64,000 nucleotides of DNA from Methanomassiliicoccales archaeon RumEn M1 (GTDB lineage Archaea; Thermoplasmatota; Thermoplasmata; Methanomassiliicoccales; Methanomassiliicoccaceae): assembly GCA_001421185.1 (NCBI GenBank), contig LJKK01000027.1, forward strand, positions 1 through 64,000. The letters run 5' to 3'. The translations under genes and the position numbers were made by a program. The notes beneath the pieces were generated by a model. It did no database searches and was not told the DNA's origin. It saw only the letters and a list, made by a program, of their open reading frames with translations. Below, one piece after another: positions 22,336 to 26,372 of the stretch. Numbering within the stretch: the stretch's first letter is position 1; each line of letters starts with the position of its first letter.

Positions 22336-23681
22336 ATGCCCGTCCAGGAGCATGTTTCTAAGGAAGATATCTTCCGCGCAGTCAAGGAGCAGGAGGTCAA
22401 GTTCATCGAGGTCCAGTTCTCCGATATACTGGGTTCGGTGAAGACGGTTTCGTTCCCCGTCTCCAACTTGGAGAAGGTCCTGGACGAGGGAGTGTTCATC
22501 GACGGCTCCTCCATCCTGGCTACGCCACCATCGAGGAGTCGGACATGCGGGCCCAGCCCATATTCGACTCCTTCCAGATCTATCCCTGGACGTGCAACGG
22601 GCACATCAAGACCGCCAGGCTGCTGTGCCAGATCTTCGACCACTCGGGCAACCGGTTCAAGGGCGACCCGAGACTGGTGCTGGAGCGGATGGTAGAGAAG
22701 GCCCGCGAGAAGGGCTACACCTTCAACGTGGGACCGGAGTTCGAGTTCTACATGTTCAAGCTGGATGCCAACGGCAATCCTACGGCCATACCGTCCGATA
22801 CCGAGGGATACTTCGACCTCATGGCCCTGGACCGGGGCGAGGAGGTCCGCAAGGACATCGTCCTCAACCTGGACGCGATGGGGTTCGATTGCGAGGCCTC
22901 GCACCACGAGGTGGGCCACGGCCAGCACGAGGTGGACATGCGCTATGGCCCCGCCCTCACCATGGCCGACCGCATCATGACCTTCAAGCTGACGGTGAAG
23001 ACGATCGCCATGCGGCACGGACTGTGGGCCAGCTTCATGCCCAAGCCCATACACAACATGGCCGGCTCGGGGATGCACGTGCATCAGTCCCTGGCCTTCT
23101 CCAATGGCAAGAACGCCTTCGACGACCCCGATGGCGACTACGGGCTGTCGAAGACGGCCATGCATTACCTGGGAGGGCTGTTGGCGTATGCCAACGAGAG
23201 CAGCGCCATACTCAACTCCCATGTCAACTCCTACAAGCGGCTGGTGCCTGGCTACGAGGCCCCCTGCTACGTGTCCTGGGCCAACCGCAACCGCTCGGCG
23301 CTGATCCGCGTGCCGGCCGGCCGAGGGGGCAGGGCCAGGATCGAGCTTCGCAACCCCGACCCGGCCGGGAACCCGTACCTGCAGTTCGCCATCATGCTGG
23401 CGGCGGGCCTCGAGGGCATCGAGAAGGGCATCATGCCCCCCGAGCCGGTGGAGAAGGACATCTATCACATGAACGCCGAGGAAAGGGCCGATTTCGGCAT
23501 CAAGTCGCTGCCGGAGAACCTTGGCCATGCCCTGGCCATCATGAGCAGGAGCGAACTGGTGAAGAACACCCTCGGCGAGCACATCTTCGAGCACTACCAG
23601 AACATCAAGGGCCAGGAATGGGACGAGTACCGGACCATGGTCACGGACTGGGAAGTGGGCAAGTACCTCGGCTCGCTCTAA
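22336..23681 (+). CDS. glnA: Glutamine synthetase type I (frameshifted)
   Basis: Makes glutamine from glutamate, ammonia and ATP, and supplies the amide donor used by GatCAB. The N-terminal beta-grasp part (VKFIEVQFSDILGSVKTVSF, FIDGSSI) is in one frame. From MRAQPIFDSFQIYPW onward the catalytic domain is in the next. It shows NVGPEFEFY (metal Glu), HHEVGHGQHEVD (ATP/metal), NPKPIHNMAGSGMHVH-type loop and SWANRNRSALIRVP. One base is missing near 22519-22525, where ATC-x-GGCTACGCC would restore the family motif. The total length of about 447 residues is normal. The tail lacks the adenylylation-site Tyr motif of GSI-beta, so it is GSI-alpha-like. Confidence 0.88.
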
Positions 23682-23683
23682 AC

Positions 23684-23705
23684 CGCCCTCGCGGGCGCCC
23701 TTTCA
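23684..23705 (+). terminator. glnA terminator
   Basis: CGCCC (23684-23688) and GGGCG (23693-23697) form a five-pair GC hairpin three bases after the glnA stop, followed by a T-rich stretch (TTTCATTTATTTT) that also overlaps the left edge of the insertion sequence. Confidence 0.5.
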
Positions 23706-23713
23706 TTTATTTT

Positions 23714-23732
23714 GGCTAAAAGCGCGGCATTC
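23714..23732. repeat. Left subterminal inverted repeat of the IS1111-like element
   Basis: GGCTAAAAGCGCGGCATTC is inversely repeated at 25040-25058 with a single A/G mismatch. The flanking bases do not match, so these 19 bases are the full repeat. Confidence 0.8.
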
Positions 23733-23985
23733 CCCCGATCTCGATGCCATCACTTTATAGCTTGCGCTATGCAAGCTCGTTCGTGAGCGCGTCGCCGAGA
23801 TGTCAGGAACAACCTAATTTATTTTGGCGGCAAGATCCGCAGAATAACATTCCAGGCATGGACGGTCGGACATCTCCGTGATTTTTACCGGCGGCAGCAT
23901 CCGCAAAATGAAACGACGGCATCGTCCTCGGTCCTCGTCCCCATGTCAGCTCGTTCTCATCGAACGCGCAGAGCTGTCGGAGACA
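23733..23985 (-). ncRNA. Candidate bridge (seeker) RNA region of the IS1111-like element
   Basis: Non-coding recombinase-distal end, read on the minus strand like the recombinase. It holds two related GCGG-loop-CCGC hairpins at about 23826-23845 and 23890-23909, each preceded by a T-rich arm. An 8-bp long-range stem GAGATGTC (23797-23804)/GACATCTC (23869-23876) encloses the first of them. A further 7-bp hairpin (AGCTTGC-GCTAT-GCAAGCT) lies near 23761-23779. A 12-base string at the element edge, ATTTATTTTGGC (23705-23716), recurs inside at 23817-23828. IS110/IS1111 elements are known to encode a structured RNA here that pairs with target and donor DNA. The exact RNA ends are unknown. Confidence 0.45.
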
Positions 23986-23987
23986 GC

Positions 23988-25001
23988 TCAGGCGGTGAAC
24001 GGCGTTCCTCGCTTGAGAACCGCGTGGATCATGGCCAGCATCTTCCTGGCGGCCGACATGAGAGCTTTCTTGGCGCCCATCTCCCCCTTCTTCCGTTGGA
24101 AATAGGCGGTGATGGTCGAATCACAGTATCGAATGTGCGAGAGCGTCACGCGCTCCATGATGGAGCGCATCATCGGATCGCCGCTCTTCGTCATCCGACC
24201 GTGATGCTCCTTTCCTCCCGAATCACGAACGCGAGGAGCCATGCCGAAGTACGCGCATAGTTTCTCGGGATCCACGAAGCGTGAGATGTCGACTATCATC
24301 GACATCAGCTGGACGGCCGTCTGCCGTCCTATGCCCGGTATCGACTCGAGCAGCTCGACGTTCCTATCCTCGTTCCCTCGCCGCTCGATCTCCTTGGCGA
24401 CGCTGTCCGATTCCTTGAGCAGAGCGGCGTAGCCGCTCACTCTCTGGAGCAGAGTGTAATCGTTCGAGTACGTCGTCGATATGAACTCCCTCGACCTCTT
24501 GGCCGAGAGGTCATGGAACTGCGATGGCAGTTCCTCGCAGTTCCGGTGCATGTGCGAACGAATGCGTCGAACCTCGTCGCCCAGCTTGTTCGACAATTCT
24601 TCCTTGTAGCGGCACAGGTCCTTGAGCTCCGCCTCCGCCTCGGTCGGAACATACGACATCGCCAGCTCGATCTCCTTGTTCTTCCACAGCCGAAGACAGC
24701 GGCCGATCCATTCGGCGTCGGTGCGATCGGTCTTCTTGTCCGAGTCGGTTATCATCCTGAGACTGCGCGCGTGAACCACGTGCGCCTCGATCCCGAGACG
24801 CTCGAAGAATCGATAGACGACGTACGAATACGTGCTTGATTCCATCATGACCACGTACTCCGAACCGTTCATTCTCGCGTGCAGTTCTCCGAGACCGATG
24901 TCGTTCGTTCGCACTTTGGCGCTCATGACGGCCTTGCCGCCTGCGCTGATCGCGCAGGCCACGGTGTTGCCTTTATGTACGTCCAGACCAATGTATTTCA
25001 T
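23988..25001 (-). CDS. IS110-family recombinase/transposase
   Basis: A 337-residue recombinase. The N-terminal RuvC-like DEDD domain begins YIGLDVHKGNTVACA with the first Asp. The acidic pair follows in VVMMESSTYSY and TDRTDAEWIGR. The C-terminal IS116/IS110/IS902 domain includes IPGIGRQTAVQLMSMI and a Ser-bearing segment (MTKSGDPMMRSIMERV) that carries the nucleophilic serine in this family. The full-length frame is intact, so the element could be active. Codon use is less GC-biased than in neighbours (many CGA and TCG), consistent with acquisition. Confidence 0.92.
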   Translation of the reverse strand: MKYIGLDVHKGNTVACAISAGGKAVMSAKVRTNDIGLGELHARMNGSEYVVMMESSTYSYVVYRFFERLGIEAHVVHARSLRMITDSDKKTDRTDAEWIGRCLRLWKNKEIELAMSYVPTEAEAELKDLCRYKEELSNKLGDEVRRIRSHMHRNCEELPSQFHDLSAKRSREFISTTYSNDYTLLQRVSGYAALLKESDSVAKEIERRGNEDRNVELLESIPGIGRQTAVQLMSMIVDISRFVDPEKLCAYFGMAPRVRDSGGKEHHGRMTKSGDPMMRSIMERVTLSHIRYCDSTITAYFQRKKGEMGAKKALMSAARKMLAMIHAVLKRGTPFTA

Positions 25002-25039
25002 GCGGCATTCGCTCCTTTTTGTTGACCACTTGAGGTAAC

Positions 25040-25058
25040 GAATGCCGCGCCTTTAGCC
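25040..25058. repeat. Right subterminal inverted repeat of the IS1111-like element
   Basis: GAATGCCGCGCCTTTAGCC is the inverse of 23714-23732 except for one base. It lies about 40 bases before the recombinase start codon. Confidence 0.8.
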
Positions 25059-25100
25059 CGATGGTTATTTTTATACCAACCGCTCAACTTATCAACGATA

Positions 25101-26372
25101 ATGAAAGGGTTGCAATGGATGGCGGCCGCCCTTATGGCCGCCCTGCTGTTGCTGGGAACGATGTCGGCCGCGGCGGCCGGGCCCGCCGCGCCGTCGGAAG
25201 CCATGGCCAGGGCTGAGAACGGGGACGTGATCGTCACCTGGGCCCCGCCCCCTGCCAGCAACATCATAGTGCAGACGGGCTGCACCGCCTCCAACCTCTC
25301 CATGACGCCGGTGGCCGAGGCGTTCATGGCCCAGCACCCGTCGTTCGAGATCAGGATGACCGGCGGCACCAACGACCTGGCCTTCACGGAGTGGACCGAG
25401 GGGCGGTCGGACATCGCCCAGGCGTCCCGGGCCATCAATGCCGAGGAGAGGAGCAAGGCCCGGGAGGAGGGGCTGCAGCCCGTGGACATCATGGTGGGCG
25501 CGGAGGCCGTGTCGGTCCTGGTCAATCCCGACCTAGGAGTGGAGGGACTGAGCATGGAGCAGCTCCGAGGCATATACAACGGCAACATCACCACCTGGTC
25601 GGAGGTGGGAGGGCCCGACGTTCCAGTGGAGCGACTGGGGGCCGTTAAGGGCACGAACGCCTACAACCTGATCAACAGCATGGTCCTGAAGGGCGACGGG
25701 TACGCCAACATGTCGCATTACGATGCGGCCGACATGCCGTCCGAGGTGATGAGGCGGGAAGGAGGCATCGGCTTCCTCCTGCACGGACAGCTGCCGCCGG
25801 GGAGCGAGGACATGGTGATCGGCATATCCGCCACCGAGGGCGGTCGGCACTTCAGAGCGGACGAGGGGACGGTGTTCTCGTCCTCCTACCCCCTGTCCAG
25901 GACGTTCCACCTGATCACCGACGGCGAGCCCGACGGCGCCACGGGCTCCTGGATCAGCTACCTGCTCGATCCCGATGGAGGGCAGGCGATCCTGGAGGAG
26001 AACGGGTTCTTTCCCCTGCCCGCCGATGAGAGGGAGGACAGCGTCAGCATGATAGCCGGCACCCTGACCGAAACGCTCGCCTTCCACGTGTACCGCAGCT
26101 ACAACAGCGCCGAGGAGCGGTTCGTCGTCAACGGCACAACGTTCACCGACGAGGCCCCTCCACTGGGGGTCAACATCACCTATCAGGTGTCGACGGTGAT
26201 CGATGGAGAGGAGAGCGAGAGGTCGGAGCCGTTGCAGGTGTTCGTCCCCAAGGGGTCGACTGACGAGGTGGACGACGCGCCGGGGGAGGGCAGCTACCTG
26301 CTCCCCCTGGTGGGCATCGTCGGCCTATCGGCCGTGGCGCTCCTGGCGCTGGCAGCGAGGAGGCGGAGATAG
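25101..26372 (+). CDS. PstS-like phosphate-binding surface protein with C-terminal anchor
   Basis: A 423-residue exported protein. A signal peptide (about 1-27, Ala/Leu-rich) is followed by a PstS-like periplasmic-binding domain. It contains GCTASNLSMTPVAEAF, then MTGGTNDLAFTEWTEGRSDI and LRGIYNGNITTWSEVGG, all typical of phosphate-binding proteins. Past residue 320 comes a beta-rich segment with NGT glycosylation-type sequons. An acidic spacer and a single C-terminal helix (SYLLPLVGIVGLSAVALLAL) ending in RRRR complete the protein. The anchor makes it an outward-facing surface protein. No pstCAB genes are adjacent, so transport, sensing or adhesion are all possible. The insertion sequence ends about 40 bases upstream. 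Confidence 0.75.
   Translation: MKGLQWMAAALMAALLLLGTMSAAAAGPAAPSEAMARAENGDVIVTWAPPPASNIIVQTGCTASNLSMTPVAEAFMAQHPSFEIRMTGGTNDLAFTEWTEGRSDIAQASRAINAEERSKAREEGLQPVDIMVGAEAVSVLVNPDLGVEGLSMEQLRGIYNGNITTWSEVGGPDVPVERLGAVKGTNAYNLINSMVLKGDGYANMSHYDAADMPSEVMRREGGIGFLLHGQLPPGSEDMVIGISATEGGRHFRADEGTVFSSSYPLSRTFHLITDGEPDGATGSWISYLLDPDGGQAILEENGFFPLPADEREDSVSMIAGTLTETLAFHVYRSYNSAEERFVVNGTTFTDEAPPLGVNITYQVSTVIDGEESERSEPLQVFVPKGSTDEVDDAPGEGSYLLPLVGIVGLSAVALLALAARRRR

What the first reader, a model, noticed from the sequence alone, without database searches (positions are those of the whole stretch)
23705..25065. Archaeal IS1111-like element with a candidate bridge/seeker RNA in its 3' end
Seen: an intact IS110-type recombinase, 19-bp subterminal inverted repeats, about 250 non-coding bases after the recombinase stop and only about 40 before its start. 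Known: IS1111-group elements carry subterminal repeats and encode a target-choosing RNA in the 3' non-coding end. Seen and notable: a 12-base string spanning the left element edge (23705-23716) recurs exactly inside the non-coding region (23817-23828), as a guide matching the DNA junction should. Inference: this is a programmable RNA-guided recombination system in an archaeon.
Basis: partly seen in the sequence, partly recalled or inferred. Interest (0 to 1): 0.7.

Follow-up and report, generated by a model that had tools for sequence, protein, structure and literature searches.

The report
Archaeal jumping element with bridge RNA
This is a small archaeal jumping gene of a known type (IS1111) that carries, beside its recombinase gene, the plan for a guide RNA with two loops: comparison of about 20 relatives shows that one loop matches the DNA next to each insertion and the other matches the element's own ends, so the known bridge/seeker-RNA mechanism very probably operates in methanogen-related archaea too.

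Summary
The window holds an intact IS1111-type element, about 1.36 kb, with 19-bp subterminal inverted repeats and a 3' non-coding region. That region encodes a structured RNA on the minus strand (23938-23794). Eighteen relatives support its fold: 95% of cells are paired, and 11 of 18 pairs have changes on both sides. Matches are confined to this archaeal order in the genomes searched.

The RNA has two guide-bearing hairpins. A scan of every RNA window in both senses picked the arms of the first hairpin as best match to the left and right flanking DNA (family-wise p = 0.002 and 0.005). It picked the 3' arm of the second as best match to the element's right end (p = 0.003). So the first loop reads the target. 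The arm order is the one published for IS1111, the reverse of IS110.

A sister copy in the same genome differs in both ends and in both donor-guide arms, as compensatory change would. No RNA or recombination was measured. This is a new, well-supported archaeal member of a known kind.

The parts
23709..25067 (-). IS1111-type element, right end at 23709, left end at 25067; edges ambiguous within the flanking T runs (23706-23708 and 25068-25072), which hold the exchanged core (AA on the minus strand)
   Evidence: Conserved ends over about 17 relatives and the empty sites in congeners
23991..25001 (-). IS110/IS1111-family DEDD recombinase, 337 aa, intact; stop codon 23988-23990
   Evidence: Pfam and NCBIfam matches; D7, E54, D92, D95 invariant in 15 aligned relatives
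25040..25058 (-). left subterminal inverted repeat (GGCTAAAGGCGCGGCATTC on the minus strand)
   Evidence: pair I2, 18 of 19 complementary
23714..23732 (-). right subterminal inverted repeat
   Evidence: pair I2
23794..23938 (-). predicted bridge/seeker RNA core (covariance model R1 match, 138.5 bits); true RNA ends unknown
   Evidence: The window copy is one of the 18 sequences the model was built from, so its score is by construction; the independent support is the covariation and the held-out copies.
23906..23913 (-). right target guide, 5' arm of hairpin 1 (UUUCAUUU); pairs with AAATGAAA of the right flank (complement of 23701-23708)
   Evidence: RT covariation: permutation p = 1e-4, family-wise p = 0.005
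23891..23904 (-). stem-loop GCGG-AUGCUG-CCGC that caps the target-binding loop
   Evidence: helix 4: 100% of cells paired, 2 pairs with changes on both sides
23881..23890 (-). left target guide, 3' arm of hairpin 1 (CGGUAAAAAU); UAAAAAU is identical to the left flank plus edge (complement of 25067-25073)
   Evidence: LT covariation: permutation p = 5e-5 to 1.5e-4, family-wise p = 0.002
23876..23919 (-). target-binding loop with closing stem CCGU (23919-23916) / ACGG (23879-23876)
   Evidence: helix 3: 94% of cells paired, 3 of 4 pairs with changes on both sides
23841..23849 (-). right donor guide, 5' arm of hairpin 2 (UGUUAUUCU); revcomp AAUAAC equals core plus left end; the sister copy has AAUGAC in both places
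   Evidence: little variation, so weakly tested
23827..23840 (-). stem-loop GCGG-AUCUUG-CCGC that caps the donor-binding loop
   Evidence: helix 5: 98.6% of cells paired, 3 of 4 pairs with changes on both sides
   Evidence: RE covariation: permutation p = 5e-5, family-wise p = 0.003
23699..23708 (.). right flank of the target (3' of the glnA-like gene) with the core T run
   Evidence: Same-genus loci L053 and L054 carry CGTCCTTTCATTTTATATA and CGTCCTTCCTTTTTTATAC without an insertion
25068..25078 (.). left flank of the target (TTTTTATACC...) with the core T run
   Evidence: Same empty-site comparison

Best explanation
This is an autonomous IS1111-type insertion sequence of a Methanomassiliicoccales archaeon. 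It encodes a DEDD (RuvC-like) recombinase and, downstream on the same strand, a two-loop bridge/seeker RNA. Inferred cycle: the recombinase-RNA complex excises the element as a circle, joining right end to left end as GCCAAAAT-AA(A)-TAACC. [quoted passage not shown] The recombinase then exchanges strands at the shared A/T core without duplicating target DNA. Shown here: gene, ends, conserved two-hairpin fold, guide-flank and guide-end covariation, and empty sites in congeners. Inferred from published relatives: transcription, circle formation, pairing in the complex and catalysis.
For: (1) Recombinase identity and invariant DEDD residues; closest solved chains are ISCro4 and IS621. (2) Conserved RNA structure: 95.1% of cells paired against 85.5% in shuffles, 11 pairs changed on both sides, 0 of 500 shuffles reach the covariation score, and slid structures fall to 28-45%. 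(3) Unbiased scan of about 295 RNA windows in both senses: the top hit for the left flank is the 3' arm of hairpin 1 (identity), for the right flank the 5' arm of hairpin 1 (revcomp), and for the element's right end the 3' arm of hairpin 2 (identity); family-wise p = 0.002, 0.005, 0.003. (4) Fixed-register permutation tests give p of about 1e-4 (5e-5 to 2.5e-4), and about 0.003 (left) and 0.002-0.005 (right) within one closely related clade whose elements differ mainly in these arms, e.g. TCAGAAAT/TCAGAAAT, CTCAAAT/CTCAAAT, CTGAAAT/CTGAAAT. (5) Copies found only afterwards by the RNA model agree: 4 of 6 match 7-8 of 9 right-flank bases. (6) The sister copy in the same genome differs at both ends and in both donor arms in a compensating way. 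(7) Congeners have the uninterrupted site at the predicted length: 29 nt predicted, 29 and 30 nt found.
Against: No RNA expression, circle or transposition data. Single-sequence folding of the window copy is not exceptionally stable (z = 0.32). Guide matches are imperfect in several elements (L016, L043, L046, L075, L079). Right donor guide and left end hardly vary, so their link rests on one change. Relatedness inflates the right-end test. The RT match needs 1-2 nt of slack between elements. The guide arms were assigned by eye before the permutation test; the later scan over all windows covers that choice of position but used the same flanks. A third congener (L052) has a shorter intergenic stretch that does not help place the boundary.
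Confidence: 0.9

Rival explanations
1. The 12-mer marks the target guide, and the element ends by the published IS1111 rule (7 bp and 3 bp outside the repeats, 23711-25065). Hairpin 2 would then read the target.
For: Hairpin 2 matches the sequence across the right edge, and the 7/3 rule is established for studied IS1111 elements (PMC11187229).
Against: Under the 7/3 rule the rebuilt target is about 36 nt where same-genus empty sites have 29 and 30. The bases in question (ATGACC; AAGT or AAGG) are the same in elements with quite different neighbours, so they travel with the element. The variable flanks are tracked by hairpin 1.
Confidence: 0.08
2. The 3' region is an ordinary structured end of the transposase mRNA or a binding site for the protein; the matches to flanks come from A-rich composition.
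For: All targets and guides are A/T-rich in GC-rich genomes, so chance matches are easy.
Against: The permutation tests keep composition, re-pairing guides with other A-rich flanks, and still give p of about 1e-4 and family-wise p of about 0.005 or below.
Confidence: 0.02
3. The element is a decayed fossil: RNA and gene are intact by sequence but no longer mobile.
For: Only two copies in this genome, 89% identical, so no recent burst.
Against: Intact ORF, intact catalytic residues, matching guides and ends; relatives sit at different sites in many species.
Confidence: 0.15

Closest known systems
IS1111 group of the IS110 family with seekRNA (ISEc11, ISPa11, ISKpn4; PMC11187229)
   Same: DEDD recombinase of about 340 aa, long subterminal inverted repeats, long NCR downstream of the gene, and top-strand match 5' of the bottom-strand match in the RNA
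   Different: Archaeal host; two symmetric GCGG-capped hairpins read target and donor; the ends appear to extend beyond the 7/3 rule to an AA core; STIR 19 bp
IS621 bridge RNA (IS110 group; PMC11208160, PMC11208158)
   Same: Two loops, one for target and one for donor, each pairing with bottom strand on the left and top strand on the right and sharing a core
   Different: RNA lies at the 3' end instead of the 5' end; arm order within each loop reversed; core AA(A) instead of CT; the donor loop has no clear closing stem here
ISCro4 recombinase (PDB 9t56) and IS621 recombinase (PDB 8wt6)
   Same: C-terminal region with the Transposase_20 domain (residues 214-337 match at 1e-9 to 7e-9)
   Different: Distant in sequence; only this region is picked up by phmmer

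Membership tests
IS110/IS1111 family | DEDD_Tnp_IS110 plus Transposase_20 domains and DEDD catalytic residues | tested here: met
IS1111 group | Subterminal inverted repeats | tested here: met
   19 bp, 95% complementary; published range is 7 to 17 bp (PMC11208160)
IS1111 group | Longer non-coding region downstream of the recombinase gene | tested here: met
   about 280 nt downstream, about 67 nt upstream
IS1111 group | RNA arm order: top-strand match 5' of bottom-strand match | tested here: met
   5' arms match as reverse complement, 3' arms by identity
IS1111 group | Terminal extensions of 7 bp and 3 bp beyond the repeats, no target duplication | tested here: inconclusive
   Empty sites and conserved ends favour longer extensions with exchange in an AA core; no circle was sequenced
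Bridge RNA | Conserved structured ncRNA with a target-binding loop that tracks the flanks | tested here: met
Bridge RNA | Donor-binding loop that tracks the element ends | tested here: met
   Right end p = 0.003 family-wise; left end only one informative change
Bridge RNA | RNA expressed and bound by the recombinase; recombination depends on it | not testable with these tools
   needs experiment
Rfam family | Match to a curated RNA family | tested here: not met
   No match up to E = 1 in 23600-25200

The most novel reading that the evidence does not exclude
Natural re-coding of the donor side: two sister elements in one archaeal genome have changed both element ends and both donor-guide arms together (AAAAT-AA-ATAACC with its guides here, TAAGT-AA-ATGACC with its guides in the sister). 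They would then be two mutually orthogonal bridge-RNA systems in one cell.
Probability: 0.4. Interest if true: 0.55.

Novelty: new member of a known kind. Interest (0 to 1): 0.42.

Why it matters
It extends the bridge/seeker-RNA mechanism, by covariation over about 20 natural elements rather than by resemblance, to an IS1111 subfamily of Methanomassiliicoccales. It gives precise, testable assignments for all four guide arms. The subfamily may serve as a natural series in which closely related recombinases differ mainly in their target arms, and in one case in their donor arms.

Tried and rejected
Rfam search: nothing. Viral contigs: no relative. The 7/3 boundary was tried first; it would require every target to carry the same TG/GT next to the element, and was dropped after the empty-site comparison. 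Empty sites for relatives L015, L040 and L012: flanks too variable to fix the boundary. Idea that the elements are aimed at transcription terminators 3' of genes: 11 of 25 insertions have a convergent ORF (70 aa or more) ending 10-55 nt away, and two more sit at tRNA 3' ends. Intergenic AAA sites in the window do so in 31% of cases anyway, so P(13 or more of 25) is only 0.02; not claimed. Single-sequence RNA folding was uninformative. L017 and L019 were left out of the left-flank test because no left end could be recognised. L023 and L047 (37-39% identical recombinases) gave no match to the RNA model at E up to 1.

Full report
Observation. The window carries an intact ORF of 337 aa on the minus strand (23988-25001) with DEDD_Tnp_IS110 and Transposase_20 domains and a strong match to NCBIfam NF033542, 'IS110 family RNA-guided transposase'. 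Inverted repeats of 19 bp lie at 23714-23732 and 25040-25058. The 12-base repeat 23705-23716 / 23817-23828 is exact. All catalytic residues (D7, E54, D92, D95) are invariant among 15 aligned relatives. The closest solved chains are ISCro4 and IS621.

Relatives. A second copy, 89% identical, lies in the same genome (C28:6932-8294). Recombinase searches found relatives at E of 1e-60 or better in 20 of 147 genomes of the order. In the class-wide sample of 400 they occurred in 14 genomes, all of the same order. Loci with names are from Methanomassiliicoccaceae, Methanomethylophilaceae and Thermoplasmata MAGs, so the host is archaeal. About 20 distinct elements could be oriented and read at one or both ends.

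Structure. Eighteen 3' regions were aligned and folded together. The consensus has three nested stems closing hairpin 1 and a second, similar GCGG/CCGC hairpin 2. Counting gave 95.1% of cells paired, 11 of 18 pairs with changes on both sides, a covariation score reached by 0 of 500 shuffles, and slid structures at 28-45% paired. The model built from them found further copies with no or only partial recombinase hits, e.g. L069, L074, L075, L077, L079, L087. The fold of the window copy alone is not exceptional, so the evidence is comparative.

Guides. In fixed registers chosen by eye, the 3' arm of hairpin 1 matches the left flank (p 5e-5 to 1.5e-4), the reverse complement of its 5' arm matches the right flank (p about 1e-4), and the 3' arm of hairpin 2 matches the element's right end (p 5e-5). 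Within one close clade of seven elements the two target tests give p of about 0.003 (left) and 0.002-0.005 (right). To remove the choice of position, all RNA windows were then scanned in both senses. The same three arms came out on top, with family-wise p = 0.002, 0.005 and 0.003. Of six copies found afterwards by the RNA model, four match 7-8 of 9 right-flank bases, one 6 and one 5.

Which loop reads what. The bases next to the repeats (ATGACC on the left, AAGT, AAGG or AAAT on the right) stay with the element whatever the neighbours. In two same-genus genomes the site downstream of the glnA-like gene is uninterrupted and 29 or 30 nt long between shared anchors. Rebuilding the window's target with the exchange in the A/T run gives 29; the 7/3 rule gives about 36. 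The arm order is that published for IS1111 (PMC11187229) and the reverse of that in IS621 (PMC11208160).

Sister copy. Compared with C28, the window copy has A for G in the left end and AAAAT for TAAGT in the right end; both hairpin 2 arms carry the matching changes. This is what natural re-coding of the donor would look like. It is one lineage pair and not proof.

Limits. No expression, circle or transposition data exist here. Element relatedness weakens the right-end test. The right donor guide is nearly invariant and hardly tested. Some guide matches are poor. The apparent preference for gene 3' ends is not clearly beyond what A-rich targets would give.

Verdict. A new archaeal member of the IS1111 bridge/seeker-RNA kind, with all four guide arms assigned: three by covariation and one by a single compensating change.

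Noticed in passing
25001-25048 (minus strand): A hairpin directly upstream of the recombinase start codon (GCGGCATTCG ... CGAATGCCGC-ATG) with the AAGGAG ribosome-binding sequence in it; relatives keep it, with changes on both sides at 3 of 11 pairs. It may control recombinase translation; its arm repeats the inner half of the inverted repeat.
   Followed up: partly
23681-23708: The right flank lies about 28 nt past the stop codon of a glnA-like gene, in a T-rich stretch; two relatives (L018, L069) sit 11-13 nt from tRNA 3' ends. Enrichment over intergenic AAA sites is weak.
   Followed up: yes
25066-25101: The left flank TTTTTATACC lies about 25-33 nt upstream of the ATG of a substrate-binding-protein-like gene (25101-26372) and could be its TATA box; the insertion keeps it but replaces what was upstream.
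   Followed up: no
L077 (G005:C28): A copy in another species of the genus with the stretch between hairpin 2 and the right end missing and only a broken recombinase remnant; its target guide still matches the flank.
   Followed up: partly
window:23991-25001: The recombinase also matches NCBIfam NF052498, TIGR-Tas RNA-guided endonuclease, below its cut-off (35.8 bits against 100; residues 191-265), in line with a possible link between the two protein families.
   Followed up: no
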